Shown one piece after another: positions 43,823 through 61,439 of a DNA stretch of 64,000 bases (position 1 is the stretch's first letter; every line of letters starts with the position of its first letter). The stretch lies in assembly GCF_041860085.1 (NCBI RefSeq), contig NZ_CP124747.1, forward strand, positions 1,364,001 through 1,428,000. The letters run 5' to 3'. The position numbers and the translations under genes were made by a program. The stretch is from Schlesneria sp. DSM 10557. Its GTDB lineage: Bacteria; Planctomycetota; Planctomycetia; Planctomycetales; Planctomycetaceae. The notes beneath the pieces were generated by a model, which saw nothing but the letters and a program-made list of their open reading frames with translations, was not told the DNA's origin and made no database searches.

Positions 43823-44938
43823 ATGAAAATCGAACGCATCGAAACGATTCCCGTCGAGATTCCCCTCAAAGAAGGGTTTTCAACGAAGACCGCTCACGGC
43901 GTGCACGCGGTTTCCAACTATGTCATCGTTCGTGTGCACACCGACGAGGGGTTAGTGGGATTGGGGGAAGCGACCGTAGCGCCGCGCTGGACAGGTGAGA
44001 CGAGTGCCACCTGTATCAGCGTGATCGAGCAGCTACTGGCGCCGGCAGTGATCGGACAAAATCCACTCGATATTACGCGACTTCGGCATCGCATGGATCG
44101 CGTCGTCAAACTGAATCCCTTTACCAAAGCCGCCATCGAAATGGCACTCTGGGATATCGCCGGAAAAGCGGCGAATATGCCGATCTGCCAGCTCCTGGGG
44201 GGACCCGTTCGCGAGAAGATGCGGATCAAGTTAGTGATCGGAGCTCTCGACATTCCGACCGCGGTTCAGCTTGCAGAACGCTTTCTGAATATGGGTGTCA
44301 CCTGCCTGAAGGTAAAGACCGGCATCAACGCAGAAGATGATATCGCTCGGGTTCGGGCTGTGCGGGAAGTTGCCGGGCCCAATATTCCCATCACGATTGA
44401 TTCCAACTGCGGCTGGAACATCACGACCGCCCGCCACACACTGCAGCGGATGGCTGACCTCAATATCCTGCTCGCGGAACAACCGATTCCGCCGAACGAC
44501 CCTGCTGCGATGGGGGCGCTGCGTGCTTCGGTCCCCATGCCGATTATGGCGGATGAAAGCGTGTTTACGCTGACGGATGCCTGGAATGTCTGCGCGGCAG
44601 GCGGAGCAGATATCCTGAGTGTTTATCCTGGAAAGCATGGGGGGATTGCCGGAACTGTCGAAATCGTCAATGTCGCCAAGGCCGCCGGGATCTCTTGCGC
44701 GATTGGCAGTAACCTGGAACTGGGGATCGCAACGGCAGCAATGCTTCACTTGGCCGCCGCATTGCCGACGATCGAAAGCGAAACGTACCCCGCCGACCTT
44801 GTCGGTCCTATTTACCATCAGGCCGATCTCTTGACCGAACCGTTGGAACTCGGTCCTCCCGCTGCGGTTTGTCCTATGGGTCCTGGCCTCGGCGTGACGC
44901 TGGATGAGAAACAACTCCAGAAGTGGCGCGTCGGTTGA
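43823..44938 (+). CDS. Enolase-superfamily enzyme, MLE subgroup (copy 1)
   Basis: 371-residue enzyme of the mandelate racemase/muconate lactonizing group. The capping domain has GLGEATVAPRWTGET (47-60). The barrel has all expected ligands and bases: K163-x-K165 in LKVKTG, metal ligands D193 (IDSN), E219 (AEQP) and D244 (ADES), and the opposite lysine K271 in YPGKHGG. A K-x-K plus late K pattern belongs to the MLE subgroup (cycloisomerases, dipeptide epimerases, N-acylamino acid racemases), so the enzyme abstracts a proton next to a carboxylate. A second copy is at 50538-51677. ATG 43823 has GAAGG five bases upstream. It converges on the amidohydrolase gene. Confidence 0.9.
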   Translation: MKIERIETIPVEIPLKEGFSTKTAHGVHAVSNYVIVRVHTDEGLVGLGEATVAPRWTGETSATCISVIEQLLAPAVIGQNPLDITRLRHRMDRVVKLNPFTKAAIEMALWDIAGKAANMPICQLLGGPVREKMRIKLVIGALDIPTAVQLAERFLNMGVTCLKVKTGINAEDDIARVRAVREVAGPNIPITIDSNCGWNITTARHTLQRMADLNILLAEQPIPPNDPAAMGALRASVPMPIMADESVFTLTDAWNVCAAGGADILSVYPGKHGGIAGTVEIVNVAKAAGISCAIGSNLELGIATAAMLHLAAALPTIESETYPADLVGPIYHQADLLTEPLELGPPAAVCPMGPGLGVTLDEKQLQKWRVG

Positions 44939-45202
44939 AGGCGGATTTCTCGATGGGCGAACGGATATCGGCCAACGAATTAAGTCGCCAAATAGACGAT
45001 GGGACTGGCAGGCGGTGCTCGCCGGTCCCACGATCTTCGACGGATTGGAAGTCTCGGCTTTAAGACATCGCAATTTTCAGCTAAGACCGAGCCTGCGCCG
45101 CAAAACAAGCGCTCGACCGGGATGACGCTGTCACTAGCGCATGGCACTCAGACCAGATACGGGTCATTCTCGTATCCGCTCTGAATGCTGTCCGTCGCTG
45201 CC

Positions 45203-46051
45203 TTAGTTCAGTCCCAGCAACGGCAGGCTATCCCGGTCGATGAGTCGCTCAATCGCTGCCTCGTTCAGACGGGGCAGGGCAGTCCCCTCCAGCATCTTGT
45301 TGAGGTTGCGGAGGCCGTCAAGAGTCGCCTTAACAGTAGTGAAAGGATAGTCGGTGCCAAACAACAACTTGTCCCAGACCCCGTATTCCTGCACGAGCAT
45401 CAGGCTGTGGTAGAACTGGAAAGGACGGTAGTGAAGAGCGGAAATATCCGCGTACAAGTGAGGATGCTTACGAATCACTGCAATACATTCTCCCTCGTAA
45501 GGGTGCCCCAGGTGAGCCAGAATCATGCGGACTTCAGGATACTTCGTGGCAACGGGATCGAGATGTCGAGGGAGAGTGCATTCGATCGGCGCCTGTGAGA
45601 TAAACGTCGTGCCGGTATGGAGCAGAACGGGCAGGCGGTGTTTCTCAGCGTATTTCCAGAGTGGATCGAGTCGTTCGTCCTGAGGCAGGAAACCGGCATA
45701 CATCGGCATCAGCTTGATCCCTCGCAGGCCAAGTTCCTGATGTCCAAAATGCATCTCCTTCTCCCAGCCTGGCTGATTCGGATCAAGCGAAAGGAAGCCA
45801 ATCAACTGTTCAGGGTGAGCCGCGACATAATCGTGAATATCCCGATCATCGACCCAGAGGCCTGACAACTGTGCCTTGCCTCCAAAAACGATGGATCTCA
45901 CGCCGGGCACGGACTGGCGCTGATAGTCTTCAAAGCGCACGGTCAAATCCATTTCGACCCCGGCTTTGGCACGTTTTGCCTGCTGGCGAAAATCATCCTG
46001 AAAGTGATCGGGATAGCGCCAGAAGTGGCTATGGACGTCAATGAGTGGCAT
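45203..46051 (-). CDS. Amidohydrolase-2 (COG2159) family enzyme (copy 1)
   Basis: 282-residue metal-dependent hydrolase or decarboxylase of the amidohydrolase superfamily. Motifs in order: DVHSHFW with the HxH metal pair (5-11), GLRGIKLMPMYAGF, LLHTGTTF, ILAHLGHPYEGE and LLFGTDYPF with the catalytic Asp. COG2159 members include lactone hydrolases and non-oxidative decarboxylases. The start lies inside the end of the MFS gene (14-base overlap) with GGAGAA eight bases upstream, so transporter and enzyme are made together. A paralogue at 58123-59019 shares the HxxLYAxxSALHYRP segment. Confidence 0.9.
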   Translation of the reverse strand: MPLIDVHSHFWRYPDHFQDDFRQQAKRAKAGVEMDLTVRFEDYQRQSVPGVRSIVFGGKAQLSGLWVDDRDIHDYVAAHPEQLIGFLSLDPNQPGWEKEMHFGHQELGLRGIKLMPMYAGFLPQDERLDPLWKYAEKHRLPVLLHTGTTFISQAPIECTLPRHLDPVATKYPEVRMILAHLGHPYEGECIAVIRKHPHLYADISALHYRPFQFYHSLMLVQEYGVWDKLLFGTDYPFTTVKATLDGLRNLNKMLEGTALPRLNEAAIERLIDRDSLPLLGLN

Positions 46052-47387
46052 TCGCGAGTTCTCCGATTTCTTCTGGGGGTTCTACGGGGACGAACCTGAA
46101 ATTTGCCCAGAGCAACCCCGCTACGATCAGCACACCAATATCAATATAGAAGATGGGATCCCATTGAACGCGCCCCGTATAGCCGTGCTTTCCCAGCCAG
46201 TCCGCGATACTACCAACCAGGTACTGAGAACTCAGTCCTCCAAAGACTCCTGCAGAATTCATTAATCCGAACAGTGCTCCCACGTGTCTGCCGCTGATGC
46301 CGATTGCACAGGACCACCAGAGAGGTTGAGTCGACTGGGTCAGAAAGCAGGAAAGCGAACAACAGGTCGCAGCGAGCCAGGGCTCGCGACTCATTAAAGC
46401 GAAGCTGAGACAGACGGCGGCAGCGAAGAATGCGGTCCCTGCAAAGATTCGCTGACGTCCCTGGTGGCCGGCCCCCAGGAGACGATCGAGAATAATACCG
46501 CCGAAGAACGTTCCCACTGCCGAAGAAGCAAGGACCGTCGAAGCCATCCAGCCAGCCTGAATTTGATCGACGCCCCGGCCTTTGACCAGATAGGTCGGGA
46601 ACCATGAAAAATAAATGTAACTGTTAAATGTGCCGAAGACCATAATGAGACTTAAGAACCAGATGCTTGGATTTTTCGCAACGAGTTCCCAGGGGATCGC
46701 AGTATGGACATTCTGGGAGGTCGCTCTTCTGCCAATCAGTTCGACCTCTGCCGCGTTCACTCCCCAATGCTTTGCCGGATCATCACGAAACCACAACCAG
46801 AAGCCGACCGCCCAGACCACCCCGACGGCCCCGAACAGGACGAACGTCCATCTCCAACCAAACTGACTGATGAGAATTGCTGCTAGAAAAGGAGCTAATG
46901 CTCCACCAATTTGCGATGCTGCTAACAGAAATCCTTGAGCTCGTCCCCGTTCTTCATCCGGAAACCAGCGCGACATGACCCGGGCGACGTTGGGAAAGGC
47001 TCCCGCTTCTCCCGCCCCGAATAAAAACCGTACGACGACCATCATCCACAGGTGTGTGCACGCCCCTGTGAGAGCCGTAAACGCAGACCACCACAACGAG
47101 ATCCGGGTCAGCACGCGACGCCCCCCCAGTACGTCGCCCCATCGTCCCGTCGGAACCTCGAACAGGCCATAGGCCAAAGTGAAGGCCATCAGGACATAGC
47201 TCGTTTGTTCGTTCGAAAGCTCCAAGTCCTGTTGAATAGAGGGGAGTGCCTGCGAAATGCAGATACGATCAAGATACAGCACACCTGACAACAGACACAG
47301 CACGGCTAAAACGACAAATCTCGTACCTGTCGCAGGGGCCGAGTCCACAACTTCGGGAACCGTTGCTTCCGTGACAACATCCGACAT
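46038..47387 (-). CDS. MFS permease, anion:cation symporter type
   Basis: 449-residue, 12-segment major facilitator permease. LYLDRICISQALPSIQQDL, LAYGLFEVPTGRWGDVLGGR and FLFGAGEAGAFPNVARVMSR match the ACS family, which imports organic anions such as hexuronates, glucarate, phthalate and other carboxylates. The frame is open to 47564, but ATG 47387 gives a normal length and has AAGG upstream. It is divergent from the dimethylformamidase-like gene at 47598 with 210 bases between, and overlaps the amidohydrolase gene by 14 bases. It is probably the uptake system of the island and implies an acidic substrate. Confidence 0.9.
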   Translation of the reverse strand: MSDVVTEATVPEVVDSAPATGTRFVVLAVLCLLSGVLYLDRICISQALPSIQQDLELSNEQTSYVLMAFTLAYGLFEVPTGRWGDVLGGRRVLTRISLWWSAFTALTGACTHLWMMVVVRFLFGAGEAGAFPNVARVMSRWFPDEERGRAQGFLLAASQIGGALAPFLAAILISQFGWRWTFVLFGAVGVVWAVGFWLWFRDDPAKHWGVNAAEVELIGRRATSQNVHTAIPWELVAKNPSIWFLSLIMVFGTFNSYIYFSWFPTYLVKGRGVDQIQAGWMASTVLASSAVGTFFGGIILDRLLGAGHQGRQRIFAGTAFFAAAVCLSFALMSREPWLAATCCSLSCFLTQSTQPLWWSCAIGISGRHVGALFGLMNSAGVFGGLSSQYLVGSIADWLGKHGYTGRVQWDPIFYIDIGVLIVAGLLWANFRFVPVEPPEEIGELANATH

Positions 47388-47597
47388 GAGCTGAACCTTG
47401 AAAGAGTGGCCGAGCAGATGGGAAGCCGCTTGGAAAAAGACATGATTCGTCGCTGGCATAAACAAGATCGTTATTGTTACCTTAAGCTCTCCATGCATCA
47501 AGGAACACAACTGCGATTCTGACCTGCGGAACCCGCAACTTCGGATCGCCGTAATCTCGTTCACTACTCCTCCATGCAGATTTTGTGAGCCCGAAAC
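47388..47597. promoter_or_regulatory. Divergent promoter region of the island
   Basis: 210 bases between the permease (minus) and a dimethylformamidase-like gene (plus). It must hold promoters for both. It contains ATCGTTA at 47467-47473, which equals one half-site of the palindrome at 60368-60388 near the GntR gene. A single 7-base match is weak evidence. Confidence 0.4.
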
Positions 47598-49187
47598 ATG
47601 CTGATTGGCTACGTGAGTGACGAACGCTATGTAGCGCTCGCCGACGTTGTGTTAGAATTCGTCAACGAAGACGGTTCGTCTTGGGAAACCCGTTCCAGAG
47701 CCACCGGTTCGGTCCATTTGGACATCCCGGCGGGCAAGTATACGGTCACACTTCAGAAGCCAGGATACGGTGCGAAGCGCAGCCAGGTGAGCGTTCCACT
47801 TCCGGCCCCGCATCAGTTCCGCCTGCTGAGCGATGGATTGAGCGGGTATGCATGGCCAAAGTGGGTGAGAAGCGGCGAATCCAGCGAGTTTCGAGTCCAC
47901 TCCGTCGAACCCTATCAGCTCGAACTCTGGCGATACGGCTGGAAGCCCGAACTCGTCAAGAGCCTCGGCTGGCACGATGAACATGGGCCCCGTGCCACAA
48001 TGCAGGTCACGCCGGATGGTGACTACACACAGACCGGAGTCAAATGGAACAGTGTAGGCTATACAAATGAAGCTCACAAACAGTATGTCGAGGCGCCGGA
48101 GTTATCCGGGCTCTACTATTTTCGTGCGCAGACAGCTTCTGGACTGAAGTTCTCGTTTCCGTGGATTGTGGCGCCTCGTACTCCAGTCGCCCCCCTGGCA
48201 GTCCTTGGAAGCAATCTTACCTGGAACTCCTATAACAGTTTCGGTGGCCGCAGCAATTATATTAATGCAGATAAGCTACCCCCGACACCGACGGTCAATT
48301 CGCGTTACGATCTGGTTCGTTACTGCGATCCGCGGTTCCTCACATGGAACTGGCCATCCTATGCGCCACTGTCGTTTGACCGGCCCGAGCCGTTCAACCA
48401 CATCGACTTTGATACTCAGATCACGGACCCTATTCATGGCCGCCAAGCGTGCCATCTTGCTCCAGCCGAATGGCGATTGCTGGGCTGGCTGGAACGGCAA
48501 GGGCTGGCCTACGACTTTTACGGCGAAACTCAGCTCGATGACGAAACCCTCGATCTGCAGGCTTATCGAGCACTCATCACAGCCGTTCATCCAGAGTACT
48601 GGACACGAAAGATGTATGACCGTGTCAAGAAATGGGTCTTCGAAGAAGGTGGCCGTTTAATCTATCTCGGCGGCAACGGACTGAACTGCGAAGTGACTCT
48701 GCAGGGGTCAGCCATGGTCGTACATAATGGCGAGATTACAGGACTCGATGTTGACGGTGTGGGGGGTGAAAGCCGGCTGGCTCTTCGACATGAATCCGAG
48801 GCAAGTCTTCTCGGAGTTGTCTTCACGCCCACCGGGATCATGACGGGAGCCCCCTACGAGGTCATCGATAATAATCACTGGGCGTTTGATGACACCGGTT
48901 TGAATAATGGTGACTTGTTCGGCACCAGGTCACTGCATATGCGCTGCCCCGGCGGAGCCTCGGGGCACGAGACCGATAAGATTTCGGCGAGTTCTCCAGC
49001 CAATTCCAGGTTGCTGGCCAAAGGACTTAACCCCGATGACGGAGGGGCCGAAATGGTCAATTTCGAGACTTCCAATGGTGGAAGCGTCTTCTCGGTGGGG
49101 TCAATCTCGTGGGTGAGCAGCCTTCCCGTCGATGAACATATCTCGCAGATTACGGAAAATGTCATCCGGCGATTCATTGAAGAGTGA
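47598..49187 (+). CDS. N,N-dimethylformamidase large-subunit-like protein (copy 1)
   Basis: 529 residues. The N-terminal 75 residues form a carboxypeptidase-regulatory-like beta domain (MLIGYVSDERYVALADVVLE, IPAGKYTVTLQKPGYG). The rest matches the dimethylformamidase beta-subunit C-terminal domain: FSFPWIVAP, NSYNSFGGRSNYIN, LLGWLERQGLAYDFY, VHPEYWT, LIYLGGNGLNCEV, PGGASGHETDK. Known dimethylformamidase uses a mononuclear iron held by two Tyr and one Glu; candidates are the Tyr of PEYW and of IYLGG and the Glu of GHETDK, not verified. No signal peptide. The small subunit of the known enzyme is not seen nearby. A paralogue with the same N-terminus is at 54011-55666. Confidence 0.85.
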   Translation: MLIGYVSDERYVALADVVLEFVNEDGSSWETRSRATGSVHLDIPAGKYTVTLQKPGYGAKRSQVSVPLPAPHQFRLLSDGLSGYAWPKWVRSGESSEFRVHSVEPYQLELWRYGWKPELVKSLGWHDEHGPRATMQVTPDGDYTQTGVKWNSVGYTNEAHKQYVEAPELSGLYYFRAQTASGLKFSFPWIVAPRTPVAPLAVLGSNLTWNSYNSFGGRSNYINADKLPPTPTVNSRYDLVRYCDPRFLTWNWPSYAPLSFDRPEPFNHIDFDTQITDPIHGRQACHLAPAEWRLLGWLERQGLAYDFYGETQLDDETLDLQAYRALITAVHPEYWTRKMYDRVKKWVFEEGGRLIYLGGNGLNCEVTLQGSAMVVHNGEITGLDVDGVGGESRLALRHESEASLLGVVFTPTGIMTGAPYEVIDNNHWAFDDTGLNNGDLFGTRSLHMRCPGGASGHETDKISASSPANSRLLAKGLNPDDGGAEMVNFETSNGGSVFSVGSISWVSSLPVDEHISQITENVIRRFIEE

Positions 49188-49374: not shown

Positions 49375-50415
49375 ATGCAGCTTGTCCAGTTCGTTATTCC
49401 CAATAACGGTCGACGCGTCGGGTACGTTCGTGAGGGTGGTGTCATCGACCTGACGTCCGTCGCTGCCGACTGTCGGACTGTGTATGACCTGATCCAACAG
49501 GCGATAACCCAGAATCTCCGTCTGGGCGACGTTGTGCAAAAACTCACGACGGGAAATCAGCCCGACACTTATGCCTATGCAAATCTACTGAAAGCGATTC
49601 CCGGTGGTCCTGATCCGTACCTGATTGCGCCGATTGACCACCCCGAACCAACTCGCCTGCTGATCAGTGGAACAGGGCTATCTCACTTGGGAAGTGTTCA
49701 GTCACGAAACCAGATGCATGGTGGTGCGGCCACAACCGAACCTCAGACCGACTCGGCCCGAATGTTCGCCATGGGACTGCAGGGAGGTCGTCCGCAAGGG
49801 GATCAGCGAGGGGTTTCACCCGAGTGGTTCTACAAGGGGAACGGCCACAATTTGCGTGGCCCCCTGGCAGAACTCGATCTTCCTGCTTATGCACTGGATG
49901 GGGGAGAAGAGCCCGAGATCGTCGGCTGTTACATCGTTGACCCTGCCGGGCAGCCACGTCGAATCGGATTTGCTCTCGGTAATGAATGGTCGGATCACGC
50001 CACGGAAAAGATCAACTACCTGTATCTTGCTCCTTCCAAACTCCGCGTTTGCGCCATCGGCCCGTCCATTCAGGTCACTGAAGACTTTTCTGACATCCGA
50101 CTGCGCTGCTCGGTAACTCGAGAGGGTCTGCAAATCTACGACAGCGGAGAATTGCTGTCTGGTGAAGAGCACATGTGCCATTCACTCCAGAACATCGAGG
50201 ATCATCACTTTAAGTACGCGCAGCACCGGCATCCTGGCGACATTCACCTTCATTTTTTTGGAACCAGTAAACTGAGTTTCGGTACCCGTACCTGGAAGTA
50301 TGAAGCGGGTGACCGCATCGAGATCTCAGCGCCCGGGTTCTCTGAACCGCTCATCAATACGGTGACTGTGGGGAATGAGCTGGAAGGGATGCCGATCCGG
50401 GTCACGCCGATCTGA
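49375..50415 (+). CDS. Fumarylacetoacetate-hydrolase-family enzyme, AraD1/GguC type
   Basis: 346 residues of the FAH superfamily. The N-terminal part (GRRVGYVREGGVIDLTSVA) and the core (LLISGTGLSHLGSVQSRNQM) resemble the AraD1/GguC group. Metal-binding acidic residues are expected in EEPEIVGCYI; the C-terminal core is HLHFFGTSKLSFGTRTWKYE. Family members dehydrate or cleave 2-oxo-3-deoxy acids. ATG 49375 follows 187 bases after the dimethylformamidase-like gene on the same strand, so they are probably one transcript. It fits as a late step acting on a 2-oxo acid made by the enolase-superfamily or DapA-like enzymes. Gene symbol not assigned because the exact substrate is unknown. Confidence 0.85.
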   Translation: MQLVQFVIPNNGRRVGYVREGGVIDLTSVAADCRTVYDLIQQAITQNLRLGDVVQKLTTGNQPDTYAYANLLKAIPGGPDPYLIAPIDHPEPTRLLISGTGLSHLGSVQSRNQMHGGAATTEPQTDSARMFAMGLQGGRPQGDQRGVSPEWFYKGNGHNLRGPLAELDLPAYALDGGEEPEIVGCYIVDPAGQPRRIGFALGNEWSDHATEKINYLYLAPSKLRVCAIGPSIQVTEDFSDIRLRCSVTREGLQIYDSGELLSGEEHMCHSLQNIEDHHFKYAQHRHPGDIHLHFFGTSKLSFGTRTWKYEAGDRIEISAPGFSEPLINTVTVGNELEGMPIRVTPI

Positions 50416-50537: not shown

Positions 50538-51677
50538 TCATCGCTGGCTCTCATATTGATCCTTCGAAACCTGCGATAATCGCTCAGAATTCAACGTCAC
50601 GCCGAGGCCGGGGTCTGCCGAAGCGCGTGCGAAACCCGGTTCGCCCAACTGGGACGTTTCACAAGCATGTTCTATGTGGAAGACAGGACCGATGATGTCT
50701 GCCGCGTAGCGTTCGACACAGATATTCGGAATCGCCATACACGCATGAATCATCGCCGCCGAACCGACATCCCATTCCAGATTACTGCCGATCGCACAGT
50801 GTACTCCAGCCGCTTCCGCTAATGCGGCGATCGCCAATGTATTGAGTAGTCCGCCGTTCTTTCCCGGGTAAACGCTGATAATGTCAGCCGCCCCCTTCTG
50901 AATACAGGCGATGGCATCCTGAATCGTGAAAACGGACTCATCAGCCATAACAGGGAGACGAACGTGCTGGCGAACGCGAGCCAGTCCATCAAGATCGAGC
51001 CGATGGACGGGTTGCTCGATAAAGACCACTCCATATTCTTCCAGCAGAGGCGCCGCGCGAATCGCCTCGTTCACGCTCCAGCCTCCATTCGCATCGACTG
51101 TCAGTCGAATCTTTGGACCAACCGCCTCCCGCACCTGACGCACCCGTTCGAGGTCATACTCCAGTGGATCGTGGCCCACTTTGAGCTTTAATGTCCCGAA
51201 CCCTTCTGAAACCATTCGCTTGCCGACAAGAGCGGACTCTTCCGGTCCCACCGGCATAATGGGGAAGCGCAGTGGTAGATTAGCACTGCGAACGGCCCCA
51301 CCCAGGAGTTGGTAGACGGGTGCATTCAGTGATTTTCCAAGGAGATCGAATAGTGCCATTTCGATCCCTGCCTTGGCGAAGGGATTGGCAAATGTTTTGG
51401 ATAACCTGTCCATGCAGTGGCGAATTCGTCGTGGATCTTCACCAATCAACTTGGGGATGAGATGCTGTTCCAGCAGCGCTTTCGCCCCCAGGCACGTTTC
51501 GCCGCTCCAGTCGGGTGATCCCGTGACTTCACCGATTCCCACAAGTCCGGTGTCAGTCTCCACAAACATCATCAGGATATGAGAGGTAAATCGAAATCCC
51601 TTTGTGTTCTGTACCAGCCCAACTCGACGGTCAACGCCGATCCGCACGGGCTGCGTTCTGATATTGGCGATCTTCAA
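50538..51677 (-). CDS. Enolase-superfamily enzyme, MLE subgroup (copy 2)
   Basis: 379 residues, paralogous to the enzyme at 43823. Active-site pattern intact: K164-x-K166 in LKLKVG, D195 (VDANGGW), E221 (IEQPV), D246 (ADES) and K273 in YPGKNGG. The capping domain has GIGEVTGSPDWSGET. The frame is open to 51716, but TTG 51677 has AAAGG six bases upstream, lies 10 bases after the creatininase stop, and gives a start (KIANIRTQPVRIG) matching copy 1 (KIERIETIPVEIP). It is the last gene of the minus-strand run. The two copies differ clearly, so they probably handle different isomers or substrates. Confidence 0.9.
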   Translation of the reverse strand: MKIANIRTQPVRIGVDRRVGLVQNTKGFRFTSHILMMFVETDTGLVGIGEVTGSPDWSGETCLGAKALLEQHLIPKLIGEDPRRIRHCMDRLSKTFANPFAKAGIEMALFDLLGKSLNAPVYQLLGGAVRSANLPLRFPIMPVGPEESALVGKRMVSEGFGTLKLKVGHDPLEYDLERVRQVREAVGPKIRLTVDANGGWSVNEAIRAAPLLEEYGVVFIEQPVHRLDLDGLARVRQHVRLPVMADESVFTIQDAIACIQKGAADIISVYPGKNGGLLNTLAIAALAEAAGVHCAIGSNLEWDVGSAAMIHACMAIPNICVERYAADIIGPVFHIEHACETSQLGEPGFARASADPGLGVTLNSERLSQVSKDQYESQR

Positions 51678-51687
51678 TTCCGACCTT

Positions 51688-53988: not shown

Positions 53989-54010
53989 CGGGATCACTCC
54001 TCTCTCCAAC

Positions 54011-55666
54011 TCATTGGCCTGACACGAAATCCGGCATGGTCAGGAATCGCGTAATCACGTTGGACGTAATCCGTGAAATTGCATCGTCGACAAGCAGACA
54101 AGGAACATAAGTGATCGACCCGGCCGAGAAGACGGCCCCTCCGCTCTTTGTTTCATAGCATACGATTTCGGCACCCCCGTCGTCGCAGTTGATCCCCTTC
54201 GCCAGTAATACTGTCCCCGGTGGGGAATGTGGACTCATCTTGTCGGTCTCATGGCCGGACGCACCACCGGGAATTCGTTCCTGCAGACTTTTCTCACCGA
54301 ACAGATCTCCGTTCTTCAGTCCTGTTCCGGCGAAAACCCAATGGTCGTCCCGCACCACTTGATAAGGAGCTGCCGTCATAATTCCTGTATCGGTGCAGAC
54401 AACTCCGAGCAGGTTCGCCTCTGACTCTACTGTACGATGCATCCTGCTATCCAGATAAATCTCCGGATTCGCAGGGTCGGGCATTCCCAGTGCTCCCCCG
54501 GTACTGGGGGCGAGATAGGTTTTAAACCGAAGCCGGTCTTCTCCCAGAAACTCGACCTCACAGTTCAGGCCATTACCACCCAGATAAATGAGCTTTCCAC
54601 CCCGATTCCAGACCCAGTCCTTGACCTTTTGGTACATCTGCTTTGACCAGTATTCCGGATGAACGCTGATCATCAGGATTTTGTACGAGTCCAGATCGAG
54701 ATCTCCATTGTGGAGTTGCCATTCTGAATAGTAGTCGTATTCGAATCCTTCCCGCTCCATCCATCCCAGCAGACGCCACTCTGCGGGTGCCATCCCGCAA
54801 GTCAGGCGTCCTTCGATCGGGTCTGTCACTTCTTCGTGTTCGCGAACAACATTCCCGATTTCAGGCCGCTCGAAGGAAAGAGGAAGATACTCGTGGTCCT
54901 GAAAGCCCCAAACGTTGAACGAGCCCGCATGCGTGTAACGGATCAGGTCCTGCCGCGCGTTGACGACTGGCGCGTCCGGGAGCTGATGAGCGTTGATGTA
55001 ATTGCTGCGGCCACCAAAGTTGTTATAGGCAAGCCAGGTATTGGTCGATGCCAGAATGGCAATCGGGGCTGTCAGTTGAGCTGGCGCAACGACCCACGGA
55101 AACGAGAAGAACTCCCCCGTGCGTTCCCCTTTGGCGTGCAGGTAGTAGAGCCCTGATTTTTCCGGTCCAACCACAAACTGGGTGTGATGAGCGTTATTTC
55201 CATAGCCAACACGGTTCCACCCAACCCCGGTCTGGGTGAAATCTCCGTCGGGCAGAATCTGCATGACCGCACGAGGGCCATGTTCATCGAACCAGCCGAG
55301 GAGTTTGACGAATTCTCGTTTCCAACCGTACCGCCACAGGCTCAGCCGGTAAGGCTCGGTAGCATGCACGCGGAACTCCGATCGCCCCCCCGTCTGGACG
55401 GATCGGGGCCAGACATAACCCAGGATCCCGTCCGATAACAGGCGAAAGTGATGTGGGCGGCGGGAATCAACAGTCATGCGAGAATGCTTTGAGCCGTAAC
55501 CCTCTTTGACGAGAGTAACGACGTATTCACCTGGCTCCAGATTCGCTACGACCGCTCCTCGGGGAGTCGATCGAACAATGTCCCGTGTCTGTCCTCCCGA
55601 CTGAAACTCCAGCAGTACGTCGGCAAGTGCTACGTATCGTTCGTCACTGACATAGCCAATCAGCAC
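54011..55666 (-). CDS. N,N-dimethylformamidase large-subunit-like protein (copy 2)
   Basis: 551 residues from GTG 55666 with GAGGGAA six bases upstream. Same plan as the protein at 47598: a regulatory-like beta domain (IGYVSDERYVALADVLLEF, EPGEYVVTLVKEGYG), then the dimethylformamidase-type domain (AYNNFGGRSNYIN, LLGWMEREGFEYDYY, VHPEYWS, LIYLGGNGLNCEV, PGGASGHETDK). It has about 20 extra residues after LNCEV (FKTYLAPSTGGALGMPDPAN). The first 17 residues are nearly identical to copy 1, so the pair arose by duplication, now in opposite orientation. It lies 22 bases before the DUF1501 gene. Both could hydrolyse substituted amides. Confidence 0.85.
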   Translation of the reverse strand: MLIGYVSDERYVALADVLLEFQSGGQTRDIVRSTPRGAVVANLEPGEYVVTLVKEGYGSKHSRMTVDSRRPHHFRLLSDGILGYVWPRSVQTGGRSEFRVHATEPYRLSLWRYGWKREFVKLLGWFDEHGPRAVMQILPDGDFTQTGVGWNRVGYGNNAHHTQFVVGPEKSGLYYLHAKGERTGEFFSFPWVVAPAQLTAPIAILASTNTWLAYNNFGGRSNYINAHQLPDAPVVNARQDLIRYTHAGSFNVWGFQDHEYLPLSFERPEIGNVVREHEEVTDPIEGRLTCGMAPAEWRLLGWMEREGFEYDYYSEWQLHNGDLDLDSYKILMISVHPEYWSKQMYQKVKDWVWNRGGKLIYLGGNGLNCEVEFLGEDRLRFKTYLAPSTGGALGMPDPANPEIYLDSRMHRTVESEANLLGVVCTDTGIMTAAPYQVVRDDHWVFAGTGLKNGDLFGEKSLQERIPGGASGHETDKMSPHSPPGTVLLAKGINCDDGGAEIVCYETKSGGAVFSAGSITYVPCLLVDDAISRITSNVITRFLTMPDFVSGQ

Positions 55667-55755: not shown

Positions 55756-56676
55756 TCACAAATTCGAATTAAGTCGCAAGAGTTCCTCCGCTGCTCCCTT
55801 AATTGCCGCTTGGTCAGATTCTTTCGTCGGAGACAGAAAAGGGGTAATGGGTCCTGTTTGACTGACACCACAAAGCGACACGGCGTCATGGAGTACCCGC
55901 ACCGGGTTGATCGAATCTCGCAGTGATTCCAAAGGAACAAACTGCTGACGAATCCGCTCAGCAGTCTCATCATCCCGTGCCTGAAGGGCTCGCAGCATAT
56001 TCGTTGAAAGCCGCGGAGCGATGCAGACACACCCCGACGTGAAGCCAGCGAGGTGGAAATGCCGCAAATGCACGGCAGCCGGTTGCTCACCCATCCCACT
56101 GACGATCAATGTGGGACCGATCGCATCGATCAATCCACTCAGAAAAGGATCGTTCAGAGTGTCTTTGCGAACGATGGCATATTTGATCCAGGAAATCAGA
56201 CCGTCTTTGAACATCTGCACGACCGTCCCGACATCGACCATTTCCTCGTGTTTGAGATACAGAACCGCCGGGCGTTCAATCCGATCAACGAATCGCTTCA
56301 TGCCGCTGGCAATTCCCGCGGGTGTCGTCCCGTCGCGACTTGGCAACAGCATCGCAGTGGGAAAGGAAAACTCTCTCAGGATGGCAGCTTGATCCATCAT
56401 CATGCCGAAGGTGGGACCAACTGACGGTATGACGGTGATGTCTGATCCCGCCGATTCGGTCAGCATCTTCAGTAGCGAAGGATATTCCCGCAGGGAGACA
56501 TGCGCTAAAGCGGCGTTTCCGCCATACAGCAATGTTCTCACGCCACCCGCTTCCAGATGACGGATCTGCCTGACATTTTCCGCGACATTCAGTTCCAGAT
56601 TCGAGTCACGAGCTAACGGAGGAACAGCAATCACAGAGTTCGCCAATGAGGCGGGGGTCATTCGTCGCGTGTCCAT
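55756..56676 (-). CDS. DapA-like (dihydrodipicolinate synthase/aldolase) family protein
   Basis: 306-residue TIM-barrel lyase of the DapA/NAL family, whose members form a Schiff base with a 2-oxo acid. The likely Schiff-base lysine lies in SWIKYAIVRKD, and the tyrosine that assists it in AVLYLKHEE. VIPSVGPTFGMMMDQAAIL replaces the usual glycine-rich segment. The carboxylate-binding GTTG motif of true DapA is not seen (GGNAAL at that place), so dihydrodipicolinate synthesis is unlikely. ATG 56676 is chosen seven codons inside the open frame. It lies 89 bases upstream of the dimethylformamidase-like gene. It may cleave or dehydrate a 2-oxo-3-deoxy acid made in the pathway. Confidence 0.85.
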   Translation of the reverse strand: MDTRRMTPASLANSVIAVPPLARDSNLELNVAENVRQIRHLEAGGVRTLLYGGNAALAHVSLREYPSLLKMLTESAGSDITVIPSVGPTFGMMMDQAAILREFSFPTAMLLPSRDGTTPAGIASGMKRFVDRIERPAVLYLKHEEMVDVGTVVQMFKDGLISWIKYAIVRKDTLNDPFLSGLIDAIGPTLIVSGMGEQPAAVHLRHFHLAGFTSGCVCIAPRLSTNMLRALQARDDETAERIRQQFVPLESLRDSINPVRVLHDAVSLCGVSQTGPITPFLSPTKESDQAAIKGAAEELLRLNSNL

Positions 56677-56847
56677 TGTCGAGCGTTTCCAATGCAATGA
56701 AGTGTATAAATGAGTTTCGACCGGGTCTCATCGCGACCGAAGGGCTGACAACCTGGCGGTGCAGCAAACAAACGTCGTGTCGATTAGCATTCCAGTTTCC
56801 AACCGGACGACGTAACTCTGAGACTCTATTCTTCGCTGCGGGGCTGA

Positions 56848-57915
56848 CTATTTCCTGATCAGCTTCCAGACATCGGGCTGCATGTTGTTCCCGGCAATCA
56901 TCCAGAGGTTTCCGTCATGCACCACCAGACTGGCGGCGTGACGAGGATTCCAAGGCGTATCTGGAAGCTCGGTCCAGTCGGTCCCATCCTTCGAAAACCA
57001 GACATCTTTACGATTTCCGCCGTTTTCGTGATATCCCTCCATCACCCAGAGTCGATCGTCCCAGACAGCGACATCATGGTACTGACGAGGGTGCCACGCA
57101 GCCTTGGAGGTGTGCAGTTTCCAGTGAACGCCGTCCTCAGAACTCCAGACATCGTTGTAGTACTTGCGTTGAGGCGTGGTGGGAGTGTCGTAGGTCCCAC
57201 CGCCGAGGATCCAGATTCGGCCATTCATCACGGCCGATCCGCCGATCATCCCTCGAACGGACCAGCAGGGTTCTTCAGGTTCAATTTTCTCCCAGTTCAC
57301 ACCGTCCGTCGTGGTCCAGGCGTCGCGGTAGAATCTTTCTTCTCCACCACCAAACGCAGGCATCGTCTGACCTCCGATGACCCAGATCTTGTCCTTATGC
57401 ACCACGGTGTAGTGCAGGGCCCTCGGCCCCCAGGGAACATCCTTCCCTTTATTGACGTAGTCCCACGTCTTTCCGTCCTGCGAGGACCAGACATCGTTCT
57501 GGTAGTGGCGCTGATTGCAATCGCCACCGACGATCCACATCCGATCTTTGTAGACGACATATCCAGCGGTGTGACGCCCCTCCCAGTCGCTGGTCGGATC
57601 AAATGATTTGTCTTTGAAGGTGTTGGGTTTGACCAGAGTCCAGTCGGCGCCGTTTTCTGAGGACCAGACCTCGTTATTGCAGATCAAGGGAAAGAAAGGG
57701 CGGTCGGCGACGATCGGATTCCATCCACCTAAGAGCCACAGTTTCCCCTTGTAACTCAGAATTCCCGCTCCATCCCTCGCCACCCACGGCGCCTTCATCG
57801 TGATTAACTGCCACTCATATTTCGGATCGCTTGACGGTTCCGCGGCATCGACCAGTCCCATTGACCCTAACAGGACTCCTAGAAGTAAGAGTCGACGACA
57901 AGCTTCTCGCATCAT
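56848..57915 (-). CDS. Secreted Kelch-repeat protein
   Basis: 355 residues: a signal peptide (CRRLLLLGVLLGSMGLVDAA) followed by about six Kelch-type repeats, each with a hydrophobic strand, a double Gly and a Trp-containing closing strand (GKLWLLGGWNP, DRMWIVGGDCNQR, DKIWVIGGQTMPA, GRIWILGGGTYD, DRLWVMEGYHENGG). YNDVWSSEDG-type turns recur between them. A six-bladed propeller in the periplasm is expected. Some Kelch proteins are epimerases or lyases, but no active site is visible. ATG 57915 has GAAGGA five bases upstream; ATG 57912 is next to it. It is part of the minus-strand catabolic run. Confidence 0.85.
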   Translation of the reverse strand: MMREACRRLLLLGVLLGSMGLVDAAEPSSDPKYEWQLITMKAPWVARDGAGILSYKGKLWLLGGWNPIVADRPFFPLICNNEVWSSENGADWTLVKPNTFKDKSFDPTSDWEGRHTAGYVVYKDRMWIVGGDCNQRHYQNDVWSSQDGKTWDYVNKGKDVPWGPRALHYTVVHKDKIWVIGGQTMPAFGGGEERFYRDAWTTTDGVNWEKIEPEEPCWSVRGMIGGSAVMNGRIWILGGGTYDTPTTPQRKYYNDVWSSEDGVHWKLHTSKAAWHPRQYHDVAVWDDRLWVMEGYHENGGNRKDVWFSKDGTDWTELPDTPWNPRHAASLVVHDGNLWMIAGNNMQPDVWKLIRK

Positions 57916-58122
57916 GCAGTCCTTCTTTGTCAGTGTTCCCGAATACGCGTACCGATGGTCCAAAATCGTTCTTTCGTTTCGGGTGCGGTTAAACACCGTC
58001 GGCTTATAATCCATCCTGGATGATTGATTCGAGCTGCCGATTCACCTGTCCCCACAGTTTTGCGGTGATTGGAAGTGTCCACCCTTATCAACTCCTGCCA
58101 AGTAATTAATGGCCAGATCCCG

Positions 58123-59019
58123 TCAGGTGTATTCGGGCAGGAACCGTTTCCAGTTTTCATAAATGATGTTGTGAATGACTTCATCAGAGACACGAGGAAA
58201 CTTCGTTCCCTCGACGACATCGTTGACTTTCCATTGTCCCGCGATGACCTGAGAGAATGTGGCAGACGGAAAGTCCGATCCTATGATCAGTTTATGCTCG
58301 ACCCCGTATTCAATCGCCGTCATGAAGGCCTGGTAGTGACGGAGCGGTCGGTAATGTAATGCTGACACATTGGCATAGAGATTGGGGTGCTTCCGAATCA
58401 GGACAACGCACTCGGTTTCCCAGGGGTGCCCCATGTGGGCAATCACGATTCGCAGATCCGGGCAGGCAATGGCAATATCTTCCAGTTGCACAGGGTTGGC
58501 ATACTTGAGCGGACCGGGGCGAACGAACGACGTCCCCTGATGAATATTGACAGGAATGCCAAGCGATTCCGCTTTACGGAAGAGCGGCAGGTGACGGGGG
58601 TCTTGCGGGTCCCAGTTCTGATAGATCGGCGACACCTTCAGACCACGGAAACCAAGCTGGTTCACGTAGTAGTCCAGTTGGCTAACACACTCAGGGTCAT
58701 TGGGATCGACGGAACACCAGCCGATGAAACGATCCGAATGCTCGCGGACGAATTTCGCGATCAGTTCCTGGTCGGCATGAATGCCACAAAAAGGGGCGAC
58801 GATCCCAAAGACGATCACCTTATCGGCGGTACGCGTGGCCTCCAGTAATTGCTCGGGTCGGGAATCGAACGTGTTTTTATAACTGACATCGTCGCCTGCA
58901 TAGTAAACATCGGATGAGAGCTTCATCTTTGCCCGTTTAGCTTCCCAGGCGAATTCGACAAATTCCTCAGAGTAATGATCCGGGTACCACATCAAATTCG
59001 TATGTGTATCAAACAGCAC
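58123..59019 (-). CDS. Amidohydrolase-2 (COG2159) family enzyme (copy 2), altered HxH
   Basis: 298 residues, paralogous to the enzyme at 45203: GFRGLKVSPIYQNW, VNIHQGTSFV, IVIAHMGHPWETE, HPNLYANVSALHYRP and LIIGSDFPS. The N-terminal metal motif reads DTHTNLMW, so the second His of HxH is Asn. The remaining His and the Asp of GSDFP are intact. Metal binding may be changed, and the enzyme could be a decarboxylase-type member or have lost hydrolase activity. GTG 59019 has GGAG upstream. It lies 207 bases ahead of the Kelch gene in the same run. Confidence 0.88.
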   Translation of the reverse strand: MLFDTHTNLMWYPDHYSEEFVEFAWEAKRAKMKLSSDVYYAGDDVSYKNTFDSRPEQLLEATRTADKVIVFGIVAPFCGIHADQELIAKFVREHSDRFIGWCSVDPNDPECVSQLDYYVNQLGFRGLKVSPIYQNWDPQDPRHLPLFRKAESLGIPVNIHQGTSFVRPGPLKYANPVQLEDIAIACPDLRIVIAHMGHPWETECVVLIRKHPNLYANVSALHYRPLRHYQAFMTAIEYGVEHKLIIGSDFPSATFSQVIAGQWKVNDVVEGTKFPRVSDEVIHNIIYENWKRFLPEYT

Positions 59020-59239: not shown

Positions 59240-60154
59240 TCATTCTTTCTTCGTCACAGGAACTGCGGGACCGACATACTTGCGATTGATACCACACCCC
59301 ACCGTTCCACTACCGTAGTAGCCGATGGAAATTCGTCCCACATGCGTCAGCAGGTCATAGGCATCCCAGCGATTCCAGCCATAATCCACTTCCATCCAGA
59401 GAATCAGCCTCGCGTAGGCTTCGGCGATCGCCCGTTCTGGCGAGTTCTGGGTGGCAACCGTCATGAGAAACTCGGGGTTCGCGATTCGGATTCCTGTGAG
59501 CGGTGATCCACGAAGCAGATCGACCTGAATTGTCGACCACGCTGCCATCTCAAGACCGGTTGCAGAGAGCTCGCCATGCCCCATCGCGGCGTGCGCGTCT
59601 CCCAGATACAGGTAGCCACCCGGCACAGAAACAGGAAGAAACAGCGTGCTTCCTGGACAGACCTCCACCAGATCCATGTTCCCCCCGTGGGGTCCGGCGG
59701 GGCCAGTGGTGGGTACACCCCAGTCAGGCGCTGTTCCGATGCATCCGAGCATCGGCTGGTAGGGAATCTGAATTCGTTCTTTCCAATGGATGAACCCATC
59801 GCGAATCGGACTGACGTGGGCTCCATGAGGGACCTCTGCCCCCAACCATTCGACCAGTTGTTTCGGAGCCCCCGTATAAGTCGCACACTGACCGTCCCGG
59901 GGTTCGATCGACTTGATCGTGACGGCCAGATAGTCCCCTTTCTCGGCCCCATCAACGACAATCGGACCCGCGACGGGGTTGCTGTAAGGAACGACAGACT
60001 TGTCCCGACGATCGCCCGCAGAACGAATTTGACCAGAGAGAGCGTCTTCCGATTCGACACAAAAAGTCTCACCCGGCTTGACGCGACATCGCGGTTGGCA
60101 GTGCCGACTGAATTCATAGACGAGAGGTTGCGCTGGTACCCGTTGCATACACAT
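59240..60154 (-). CDS. Acetamidase/formamidase family enzyme
   Basis: 304-residue enzyme of the FmdA/AmdA family, which hydrolyses formamide or acetamide to the acid and ammonia. Typical segments: SNPVAGPIVVDGAEKGDYLA, MLGCIGTAPDWG, TTGPAGPHGGNMDLVEVCPG, VPGGYLYLGDAHAAMGHGEL, and YDLLTHVGRISIGYYGSG at the C-terminus. ATG 60154 is the start. It is the first gene of the minus-strand run and faces the divergent GntR gene across 532 bases. Formamide would be the natural product for it if the dimethylformamidase-like enzymes release a formyl amide, but this link is inference. Confidence 0.92.
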   Translation of the reverse strand: MCMQRVPAQPLVYEFSRHCQPRCRVKPGETFCVESEDALSGQIRSAGDRRDKSVVPYSNPVAGPIVVDGAEKGDYLAVTIKSIEPRDGQCATYTGAPKQLVEWLGAEVPHGAHVSPIRDGFIHWKERIQIPYQPMLGCIGTAPDWGVPTTGPAGPHGGNMDLVEVCPGSTLFLPVSVPGGYLYLGDAHAAMGHGELSATGLEMAAWSTIQVDLLRGSPLTGIRIANPEFLMTVATQNSPERAIAEAYARLILWMEVDYGWNRWDAYDLLTHVGRISIGYYGSGTVGCGINRKYVGPAVPVTKKE

Positions 60155-60686
60155 CCCGCATCAACTGCCACCCCGAAAAGGGGGGATAGGTTGGTGATGA
60201 TGCAGGAGCCACGCACCCGCATTTTTTGGATACGGTATACAATCCATCCAGACTGATGTCAAACGGCCCGAACGTATTGAGCGACCCAAGTGGCTGGCCT
60301 TTTTCGGGAGACGGATCCCGCCTGACGAAACTGGAAGGGGATCTCTCTCTGCCCAACCCGCTGCTATAATCGTTACGGCTTAACGATTGAGAATCATGGA
60401 AGATTCCTTAATGTTATCGGCCTCCTTCACTCAGACGAATCGACGGAATAACAGATTGCCTGCGAGCGCATCGCTTCTGGCAGTTCGTCATTTTTTGTGC
60501 CCGTATGTAACACTCCCCCCGATATGCGTTCGATTCTCCCTGATGACCCTGGCCAGCTTCACATGTCCTCCTGGATGAGGATGTCCGGCAATGACGCCTG
60601 GATTGCAACCAATTGTCGATTGTGTACAAACCACTTCCTCGATATCGTAGATTTCAAACGGGTATGCCCCGGGAAAGATAAACCAC
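60155..60686. other. Divergent regulatory region of the GntR gene and the amide-degradation run
   Basis: 532 bases between the acetamidase start (minus) and the GntR start (plus). Contains a perfect palindrome at 60368-60388 and the partly symmetric GATACGGTATAC near 60230. Small frames in it (for example 60387-60578) have no domain or ribosome-binding site and are not called. Confidence 0.5.
60368..60388. promoter_or_regulatory. Candidate GntR operator
   Basis: AATCGTTA (60368-60375) and TAACGATT (60381-60388) are exact inverse complements around CGGCT. It lies between the divergent acetamidase and GntR genes, where an autoregulated FadR-type repressor would bind, although the size is larger than the usual GntR site. 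Not followed by a T-run, so a terminator is less likely. Confidence 0.5.
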
Positions 60687-61439
60687 ATGAGTCGGCCCGT
60701 GATTTCCGTTCTGGATCAGATTGCTTCTCGATTGCGTGCGGACGTTCGCAAGGGGGTCTTCGTTCCAGGTGACGCTCTGCGTGAAGAGCACCTTGCCAGT
60801 CGCTTTGGCGTCAGCCGCAGCCCGATTCGTCAGGTGCTGCAGCAGTTGACGTTCGAAGGGTTACTTCACGCCCGACCGAATTGTGGCACCGTCGTCGCGG
60901 AACCGCCAACCCGCGAAGTTGCGGAGGTGCTTTACGAATGTCGGGCCAAACTGGAATGCATTGCCCTGCGGCAATGTTTCCATCTGCTGGACGACGCTGA
61001 CTTCAAGCAGTGGCGCGATATCCTCGAAGAAATGTATGAGTGCTGCGACAGGGAAGATCACAGCGGCGCGTTCCACCAGGATTCACTATTCCACCGGGTC
61101 ATTATCGATAAGGCTTCCCCGGCTGGATCACTGGGCGTCTACTTTGCGATTGCAGGTGCAACAAGTGAGTACCTGACGGTCGACCGCAATCGCCCGTTCC
61201 ATGCGGATTTCCGGGAACTCTATGGAATGCACGCAGCGCTCTATGCCATGTTCCAACTCGGCGATATCGAGGTTGCCTGCGAAGCGTTGTCACAGCACAT
61301 ATTGAAACAGGAATTTGTCGCCGCCTCATGTCGTTGCTGGACCGAAGCAGGGAAGCCACGTGAAATTGATGGAGTCTATGACAAGCTGGCACAACCTTTG
61401 CGGCGGGCCGTCAAAAAGAAGAAGGAAGCAGACAAGTAG
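60687..61439 (+). CDS. GntR-family regulator, FCD (FadR-like) type
   Basis: 250 residues. The N-terminal winged helix-turn-helix is EEHLASRFGVSRSPIRQVLQ (33-52) with LLHARPNCGTVV as the wing. The all-helical FCD effector domain covers about 77-225, with possible metal ligands in DSLFHRVI and HAALYAMFQLGD. FCD regulators respond to carboxylates such as sugar acids and 2-oxo acids, in agreement with the ACS-type permease. The C-terminal tail is Lys-rich. ATG 60687 has GGGAAAG upstream. It is divergent from the minus-strand run and is the only regulator seen in the island, so it probably controls it. Confidence 0.93.
   Translation: MSRPVISVLDQIASRLRADVRKGVFVPGDALREEHLASRFGVSRSPIRQVLQQLTFEGLLHARPNCGTVVAEPPTREVAEVLYECRAKLECIALRQCFHLLDDADFKQWRDILEEMYECCDREDHSGAFHQDSLFHRVIIDKASPAGSLGVYFAIAGATSEYLTVDRNRPFHADFRELYGMHAALYAMFQLGDIEVACEALSQHILKQEFVAASCRCWTEAGKPREIDGVYDKLAQPLRRAVKKKKEADK

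What the first reader, a model, noticed from the sequence alone, without database searches (positions are those of the whole stretch)
43823..61439. Catabolic island with duplicated enzyme types and three unrelated amide hydrolases
Within 18 kb there are two MLE-type enolase-superfamily enzymes, two COG2159 amidohydrolases, two dimethylformamidase-like proteins, a creatininase-family enzyme, an acetamidase/formamidase, an FAH-family enzyme, a DapA-like lyase, an ACS-type permease and one GntR/FCD regulator. Family knowledge suggests uptake of an organic acid, amide cleavage, proton abstraction next to a carboxylate, and 2-oxo acid cleavage. I know of no described pathway with this set. The substrate is not deducible; an amide- or lactam-containing sugar acid or aromatic acid is an inference.
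Basis: partly seen in the sequence, partly recalled or inferred. Interest (0 to 1): 0.75.

Follow-up and report, generated by a model that had tools for sequence, protein, structure and literature searches.

The report
Conserved, undescribed planctomycete acid-breakdown gene cluster
A block of about fifteen genes in a planctomycete looks like a switchable pathway for taking up and dismantling an unknown acid, and parts of it recur in the same order in distant bacteria; which compound it consumes is not known.

Summary
The named enzyme families are present, and 8 of the genome's 33 matches to five of them lie in this 0.25% of the genome. A Kelch gene and a DUF1501 gene inside the run were not listed.

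FMD-AH2-Kelch-DapA-DMF2-CRE-MLE2 recurs in order in planctomycetes. DMF, CRE and MLE are same-strand neighbours in 12 distinct loci, including Chloroflexota and a Rhizobium MAG. AH1, AH2, MFS, MLE1 and Kelch share one cluster in five relatives, so the two amidohydrolases look like two steps of one pathway. GntR-FMD-AH2-DapA-MLE2 recurs in G072, with a rare TTGTRTACAA box in the shared promoter region of both.

'Amide cleavage' is only partly supported. Both DMF-like proteins keep two of three iron ligands of dimethylformamidase but align Trp at Tyr440. Of the NCBIfam models shown for the island's proteins, only GguC/AraD1 reaches its cut-off. The substrate stays open. Nine full-text searches found no description of the set.

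The parts
43823..44938 (+). MLE1, MLE-type enolase-superfamily enzyme (module B)
   Evidence: MR_MLE_C 177 bits; K163, K165, D193, N195, E219, D244, K271 invariant in 24 aligned rows; own clade of linked orthologs
45203..46051 (-). AH1, Amidohydro_2 protein with HxH motif (module B)
   Evidence: PF04909 114.5 bits; DVHSH motif and orthologs
46038..47564 (-). MFS, anion:cation symporter-like permease (module B)
   Evidence: MFS_1 217 bits; best NCBIfam name D-galactonate transporter, below cut-off
47598..49187 (+). DMF1, DMFA2_C protein (module B)
   Evidence: PF20254 179 bits; CarboxypepD_reg 29.9 bits, just below its cut-off of 32.3; ligand positions
49375..50415 (+). FAH-type protein of the GguC/AraD1 family (module B); start inferred from where the model match begins
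   Evidence: NF040903 383.7 bits, cut-off 340
50538..51716 (-). MLE2, MLE-type enolase-superfamily enzyme (module A); the listed start overlaps CRE and may be too early
   Evidence: MR_MLE_C 199 bits; K177, K179, D208, N210, E234, D259, K286 invariant in 23 aligned rows; own clade
51688..52455 (-). CRE, creatininase-family protein (module A)
   Evidence: PF02633 205.5 bits; E32, H34, D43, E171 invariant in 17 rows
52627..54009 (-). DUF1501 protein between DMF2 and CRE
   Evidence: PF07394 270 bits; at this threshold in 3 of 17 DMF2-type loci
54011..55666 (-). DMF2, DMFA2_C protein (module A)
   Evidence: PF20254 187 bits; orthologs at 72% or more in 18 of 170 genomes of the order, own genome included
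55756..56697 (-). DAP, DapA-like lyase (module A)
   Evidence: DHDPS 24.6 bits; PDB matches 3d0c, 3e96; K172 invariant in 13 rows
56848..58014 (-). KEL, Kelch-repeat protein (module A)
   Evidence: Kelch models over cut-off
58123..59019 (-). AH2, Amidohydro_2 protein with HxN in place of HxH (module A)
   Evidence: PF04909 117 bits; DTHTN in the window copy and all 10 orthologs of 80% or more that reach this part
59240..60154 (-). FMD, acetamidase/formamidase-family protein, first gene of the run (module A)
   Evidence: PF03069 102.7 bits; PDB 5ubu 182.8 bits
60232..60243 (.). imperfect operator-like box, 78 bases before the FMD start
   Evidence: two mismatches to ATTGTNTACAAT; not above chance on its own
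60619..60630 (.). operator-like box ATTGTGTACAAA, about 58 bases before the GntR start
   Evidence: only exact TTGTNTACAA in the window; equivalent box in the same spacer of L181
60687..61439 (+). GntR/FCD regulator, divergent from FMD
   Evidence: GntR 67.3 and FCD 46.2 bits, both over cut-off; 69% ortholog in the same place in G072

Best explanation
The island is one catabolic pathway assembled from exchangeable modules. The MFS carrier imports an organic anion (inferred). The GntR/FCD regulator acts on TTGTRTACAA boxes in its shared promoter region with FMD and switches the FMD-AH2-KEL-DAP-DMF2-CRE-MLE2 run when a pathway acid is present (site and its recurrence shown; binding and response inferred). 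Hydrolases open the substrate: CRE and the DMF-type protein at an amide, lactam or lactone, and FMD at a small amide released on the way (inferred from family chemistry). An MLE-type enolase abstracts the proton next to the carboxylate (residues shown; reaction type open). AH2 and AH1 carry out two hydrolysis or decarboxylation steps (co-occurrence shown, order inferred). The DapA-like lyase releases pyruvate or another 2-oxo acid through its conserved lysine, and FAH/GguC handles a 2-oxo-3-deoxy-type acid in the DMF1 module (both inferred). MLE1 and MLE2 are alternatives from two old subfamilies. In planctomycetes DMF and CRE are optional front-end steps, not the core.
For: Module A recurs in order in L010 and L011 and in parts in the other DMF2-type loci (at thresholds, of 17 loci: AH2 9, DAP 9, KEL 8, FMD 8, MLE 6, CRE 5). 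Genes of both modules stand in one cluster in L013, L053 and L062 and L185, L194-L197. In 20 AH2 loci, 15 have at least one other pathway gene: DAP 10, MLE 7, KEL 6, AH1 5, FMD 4. GntR(-)|FMD-AH2-DAP-MLE2 in L181 with TTGTATACAA in the spacer. DMF-CRE-MLE as same-strand neighbours in 12 distinct loci; about 10 of 18 CRE genes of 50% or more in 41 distant genomes lie in the fetched DMF stretches, 0.06 expected. MLE1 and MLE2 each sit in a 100/100 clade of linked orthologs.
Against: 5 of the 20 AH2 loci show no other pathway gene, and 33 of the 43 other DMF loci of the order show no partner at my thresholds; six of these lie by polysaccharide-type genes. CRE is in only 9 of 170 genomes of the order. 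The GntR is in only 2 of 170 at over 50% identity. Five other TTGTRTACAA places exist in the genome, by genes with no clear link. No box with at most one mismatch lies by module B. No step has a demonstrated activity.
Confidence: 0.55

Rival explanations
1. Two separate pathways happen to be neighbours here: module B (MLE1, AH1, MFS, DMF1, FAH) and module A (FMD, AH2, KEL, DAP, DMF2, DUF1501, CRE, MLE2, GntR).
For: L069 of the same genus has MLE1, AH1, MFS, DMF1, FAH without module A genes in its 20 kb, and L010 and L011 have module A without module B. The operator-like box is seen only by module A.
Against: Genes of both modules are mixed in single clusters in L013, L053, L062, L185 and L194-L197. 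AH1 and AH2 occur together in L046 and L062 as well.
Confidence: 0.25
2. It is an oxidative sugar-acid or sugar-lactone route in the manner of galactarolactone isomerase, galactarolactone cycloisomerase and KdgD, and the DMF, CRE and FMD proteins do not act on amides there.
For: Amidohydrolase-superfamily, enolase-superfamily and DapA-like enzymes with an ACS-like MFS are the same classes (class recall). The DAP's best NCBIfam names are 5-dehydro-4-deoxyglucarate dehydratases (32 bits of 278 and 24 of 374). FAH is GguC/AraD1. A second cluster in the same genome pairs MFS, DMFA2_C and DapA with an enolase closest to L-rhamnonate dehydratase models, below cut-off.
Against: MLE1 and MLE2 match muconate cycloisomerase and dipeptide epimerase chains (172-191 bits for the best) far better than 4ggb (85-99 bits), and none of these NCBIfam models passes its cut-off. 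No sugar dehydrogenase stands in the island; the nearest Gfo/Idh/MocA gene is outside, at 40356-41663.
Confidence: 0.3
3. It is a route for N-acyl amino acids, dipeptides or lactams, with MLE as a racemase or epimerase and DMF and CRE as amidases.
For: DMF1 and DMF2 match N-acetyl-(R)-beta-phenylalanine acylase and dimethylformamidase in the PDB. MLE matches include dipeptide epimerases and N-acylamino acid racemases. Oligopeptide-type ABC genes stand by DMF-CRE-MLE in L099, L109 and L128.
Against: Tyr440 is replaced in both window DMF proteins. The planctomycete clusters use an MFS and DapA-like lyase instead. Dipeptide-epimerase models are below cut-off (147.5 bits of 500 at best).
Confidence: 0.3
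4. A chance gathering of common catabolic genes.
For: MR_MLE_C (15 matches) and Amidohydro_2 (10) are multi-copy in this genome.
Against: Recurrent order and linkage far above chance.
Confidence: 0.03

Closest known systems
Galactarate-lactone pathway (galactarolactone isomerase, galactarolactone cycloisomerase, KdgD); steps recalled, papers seen as listings only
   Same: Amidohydrolase-superfamily, enolase-superfamily and DapA-like enzymes side by side, with a carrier.
   Different: The MLE and DAP proteins are not the members of that route by model score; FMD, CRE, DMF and Kelch genes are extra.
N,N-dimethylformamidase, large subunit (PDB 6lvb; PMC7686228, passages read)
   Same: DMFA2_C domain; Tyr399, His519 and Glu521 equivalents present.
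   Different: Trp aligned at Tyr440 in both window copies, a shorter loop there, about 530-550 instead of 775 residues, and another N-terminal part.
N-acetyl-(R)-beta-phenylalanine acylase (PDB 8huy)
   Same: DMFA2_C-type match, best PDB hit of DMF1 (53 bits).
   Different: The acylase keeps a Tyr at the Tyr440 place; low similarity over part of the protein.
Muconate/chloromuconate cycloisomerase and dipeptide epimerase group of the enolase superfamily
   Same: Same set of catalytic Lys, Asp, Asn, Glu positions (roles recalled).
   Different: TIGR02534 at 248.8 and 221.8 bits, cut-off 334.95.
GguC/AraD1 family
   Same: Passes the NCBIfam equivalog cut-off.
   Different: Stands with DMF1 and an MFS; its substrate here is unknown.

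Membership tests
N,N-dimethylformamidase | DMFA2_C (PF20254) domain in the large subunit | tested here: met
   178.9 and 187.4 bits, cut-off 27
N,N-dimethylformamidase | 2-Tyr-1-carboxylate iron site (Tyr399, Tyr440, Glu521; PMC7686228, passages) | tested here: not met
   Tyr399 and Glu521 kept in 22 of 22 rows; the Tyr440 column is Trp in both window copies (Tyr in 10, Trp in 9, Phe 1, Val 1, gap 1 of 22); the region is gappy, so the column is not certain
N,N-dimethylformamidase | small subunit encoded nearby | not tested
   No profile of the small subunit was searched; island ORFs under 150 aa were not scanned
Galactarate-lactone pathway | amidohydrolase-superfamily lactone enzyme | tested here: inconclusive
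   AH1 and AH2 are PF04909, no NCBIfam match; AH2 PDB matches are weak, best 3irs of unknown function
Galactarate-lactone pathway | enolase member is galactarolactone cycloisomerase | tested here: inconclusive
   85.3 and 99.1 bits to 4ggb (its identity as that enzyme is recalled) against 172-191 to the best MLE-type chains
Galactarate-lactone pathway | KdgD, 5-dehydro-4-deoxyglucarate dehydratase | tested here: not met
   TIGR03249 24.2 bits of 373.95; NF002958 32 of 278
Muconate cycloisomerase | TIGR02534 cut-off | tested here: not met
   248.8 and 221.8 bits, cut-off 334.95
Creatininase (enzyme) | TIGR04448 equivalog cut-off | tested here: not met
   98.4 bits of 235; Pfam family met at 205.5
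Formamidase FmdA (enzyme) | NF045496 equivalog cut-off | tested here: not met
   78.3 bits of 500; Pfam family met at 102.7
GguC/AraD1 (NF040903) | equivalog cut-off | tested here: met
   383.7 bits, cut-off 340
GntR/FCD regulator | GntR and FCD domains | tested here: met
   67.3 and 46.2 bits, over both cut-offs
GntR/FCD regulator | binds the box in the shared promoter region | not testable with these tools
   Only the recurrence of the box could be seen

The most novel reading that the evidence does not exclude
DMF-CRE-MLE is the core of an undescribed pathway spread over several phyla (Planctomycetota, Chloroflexota, an alphaproteobacterial MAG, with looser sets in Acidobacteria and an Acidimicrobiia MAG), in which a DMFA2_C protein with a rebuilt metal site opens a widespread natural amide or lactam, a creatininase-type protein hydrolyses a cyclic product, and an MLE-type enzyme racemises or isomerises the acid; planctomycetes joined it to an AH-DapA-FMD breakdown route under one GntR switch.
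Probability: 0.25. Interest if true: 0.75.

Novelty: new variant of a known kind. Interest (0 to 1): 0.5.

Why it matters
If right, enzymes that databases name 'dimethylformamidase', 'creatininase' and 'muconate cycloisomerase' by family alone work in one uncharacterised route carried by many environmental bacteria. The cluster gives concrete handles for finding an unknown natural substrate (a regulator with a candidate operator and a fixed run of eight genes), and it warns against reading solvent degradation from these annotations.

Tried and rejected
Rejected: plain duplication as the reason for two AH and two MLE genes (AH1 and AH2 travel together in L185 and L194-L197; MLE1 and MLE2 lie in separate supported clades). 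Rejected: dimethylformamide degradation as the likely role (ligand change; relatives also in polysaccharide-type contexts). Considered and left open: lignin-type routes with two amidohydrolases and an aldolase (recalled chemistry; no ring-cleavage dioxygenase among the island ORFs of 150 aa or more that I scanned).

Results that tell against the reading. The GntR-FMD spacers of the window and L181 show no long alignment, so the operator claim rests on the decamer. TTGTRTACAA has 6 places in the genome; of the other five, three lie outside the larger ORFs, one in a 115-aa ORF that may be spurious and one inside a 1367-aa ORF, and the neighbours scanned show no clear link. The 1-in-1.17-Mb background was counted on the given strand only. 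With two mismatches the box is no more frequent in the window than in shuffles (9 found, 6.2 expected). The proteins beside another box and beside an MLE paralog gave no lead.

Limits of the counts. Linkage counts depend on my thresholds and on contig length; several loci are short. L070, L071, L073 and L082 are the same contigs as L010, L011, L015 and L021 and are not counted again in the 12 DMF-CRE-MLE loci. For the CRE control I gave 44 of the 60 loci L090-L149, lying in 41 genomes, and matched CRE genes to DMF stretches by identity and number per genome, not by contig name. The 21 of 59 AH2 genes with a DMF hit within 15 kb were read by eye. The MLE tree lacks one fetched own-genome MLE locus (L167, no match) and one further weak match that I did not fetch, and rows with alignments under 220 residues were left out; it has long branches among unrelated paralogs, whose places are unsafe. 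One own-genome paralog (4005455) falls with DMF-linked MLEs of L083, L133 and L137. A structure of DMF2 was wanted and never obtained.
Full report
Observation. Two further genes stand in the run: a Kelch-repeat protein (56848-58014) and a DUF1501 protein (52627-54009). The genome is one contig of 7.07 Mb with the window at 1,364,001-1,428,000. Over the whole genome DMFA2_C, FmdA, creatininase, MR_MLE_C and Amidohydro_2 give 4, 2, 2, 15 and 10 matches; 2, 1, 1, 2 and 2 of these are in the island. That is 8 of 33 where about 0.08 is expected from length alone.

Two modules. Plus-strand MLE1, minus-strand AH1 and MFS, and plus-strand DMF1 and FAH form module B. The minus-strand run FMD-AH2-KEL-DAP-DMF2-DUF1501-CRE-MLE2, with GntR divergent, forms module A. 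DMF2 was searched in 170 genomes of the order (300 asked for); 103 have a match at E<=1e-60, and 18, the own genome included, have one of 72% identity or more. I fetched 60 stretches of up to 20 kb around DMF hits and laid the island's proteins on them. Module A recurs in the same order, most completely in L010 and L011 (FMD, an MFS, AH2, KEL, DAP, DMF2, CRE, MLE2). Among the 17 DMF2-type loci AH2 is in 9, DAP 9, KEL 8, FMD 8, MLE 6, CRE 5 (several contigs are short). Module B recurs in the same genus, in L069 as MLE1, AH1, MFS, DMF1, FAH. Of the other 43 DMF loci 33 show no partner at those thresholds.

Module mixing. AH2 at 74% or more is in 58 of 170 genomes (59 genes); in 21 of the 59 a DMF hit lies within 15 kb on the same contig (read by eye). 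I fetched 20 AH2 places, 19 of them with no DMF hit on their contig (in L200's contig one lies 24 kb away). Of the 20, 15 have at least one other pathway gene: DAP 10, MLE 7, KEL 6, AH1 5, FMD 4. L185 has AH1, MFS, MLE1, KEL and AH2 on one strand. L194-L197 have AH1, an MFS, AH2, KEL and MLE1, with DAP in three of the four. L181 has GntR divergent to FMD-AH2-DAP-MLE2. So AH1 and AH2 look like partners, MLE1 and MLE2 like substitutes for each other, and DMF and CRE like optional parts in planctomycetes.

Beyond planctomycetes. A scan of one genome per species gave 433 DMF relatives, of which the best 80 were kept. At my thresholds 43 of 80 have at least one partner, 23 at least two; MLE is in 26, AH in 19, CRE in 14, FMD in 10. 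DMF, CRE and MLE are same-strand neighbours in 12 distinct loci: L010, L011, L015, L021, L026 and L075 (planctomycetes), L096, L097, L099, L101 and L109 (Chloroflexota by record title) and L128 (a Rhizobium MAG by title). An Acidimicrobiia MAG (L091) has DMF-CRE with an MFS, and FMD further off; Acidobacteria L117 and L146 hold the three scattered within 20 kb. Control: in 41 distant genomes 18 CRE genes reach 50% identity; about 10 lie in the fetched DMF stretches, where 0.06 would by length alone. CRE at E<=1e-60 occurs in 9 of 170 genomes of the order, each of which has a DMF2-type gene.

Trees and residues. In a maximum-likelihood tree of 43 MLEs, MLE1 (6 rows) and MLE2 (7 rows) each sit in a 100/100 clade of linked orthologs; 10 of the 11 other own-genome MLEs in the tree fall elsewhere, and one (4005455) groups with DMF-linked MLEs of L083, L133 and L137. 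The catalytic positions of the MLE type (roles recalled) are invariant in the aligned sets. K172 of the DapA-like protein, which aligns with the lysine of 3d0c, is invariant in 13 rows. AH2 and its close orthologs have HxN where AH1 has HxH. DMF1 and DMF2 keep the equivalents of Tyr399, His519 and Glu521 of Paracoccus dimethylformamidase; Trp aligns at Tyr440 in both. The ligands, and that Y440A is inactive and loses iron, are in passages of PMC7686228. The label dimethylformamidase should not be taken over, though another residue may complete a site.

Regulation. GntR has orthologs at 69% (G072) and 59% (G062); the next match is 38%. In G072 (L181) it has the same divergent position to FMD. 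TTGTGTACAA is in the window's GntR-FMD spacer and TTGTATACAA in that of L181; in 63 loci (1.17 Mb, L181 included, given strand only) TTGTRTACAA occurs once, in L181. The whole genome holds 6 places. An imperfect second copy lies 78 bases before FMD; alone it would not stand out.

What it does. Shown: conserved co-localisation, intact catalytic positions in MLE and DAP, and a candidate regulatory site. Inferred: uptake of an organic anion, hydrolytic opening, proton abstraction beside a carboxylate, two amidohydrolase-superfamily steps and a DapA-type cleavage. The class composition resembles the galactarate-lactone route, but the MLE and DapA proteins are not its members by model score. The DMF-CRE-MLE core elsewhere, with oligopeptide-type ABC genes in L099, L109 and L128, leans to amides. 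A second cluster in the same genome (L178) repeats the kinds MFS, DMFA2_C, DUF1501, esterase, DapA and enolase with remote sequences, the enolase closest to L-rhamnonate dehydratase models but below cut-off, which leans to sugar acids. I cannot decide between them.

Literature. Nine searches (dimethylformamidase with planctomycetes, with iron and amidohydrolase, with operon or enolase superfamily, with Chloroflexi; the enzyme combination twice; GguC/AraD1; galactarolactone enzymes twice) gave no description of this gene set in the listings. Only passages of PMC7686228 were read. Most subscription journals are not in that library.

Noticed in passing
L178 (own genome 1064001-1084000): A second cluster with MFS, LamG+DMFA2_C, DUF1501, PSD1/PSCyt, BD-FAE esterase, DapA-like and rhamnonate-dehydratase-like enolase genes: the same kinds as the island, remote in sequence.
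   Followed up: partly
L028-L031, L034, L035: DMF1-like genes (about 70%) stand near glycosyltransferase, NAD-epimerase, DegT aminotransferase and ketoacyl-synthase III genes, a context unlike this island.
   Followed up: no
window 58123-59019: AH2 has Asn in place of the second His of the HxH metal motif, as do its 10 close orthologs that reach this part.
   Followed up: partly
L204 position 2537 (own genome 4016537): A TTGTGTACAA box lies upstream of a BNR-repeat gene and a sodium:solute symporter gene, 11 kb from an MLE paralog that groups with DMF-linked MLEs.
   Followed up: partly
L062 9095-12289: Two DMF-type genes in tandem between AH1 and AH2.
   Followed up: no
L151 (Haloferax gibbonsii plasmid pHGLR3): A full-length DMF relative (44-48%) in an archaeon, by ThDP-enzyme, aminotransferase, ABC and M81 peptidase genes.
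   Followed up: no
window 61594-63012 and 52627-54009: Two DUF1501 genes, one inside and one just outside the cluster; DUF1501 genes also recur by DMF-family genes in relatives.
   Followed up: no
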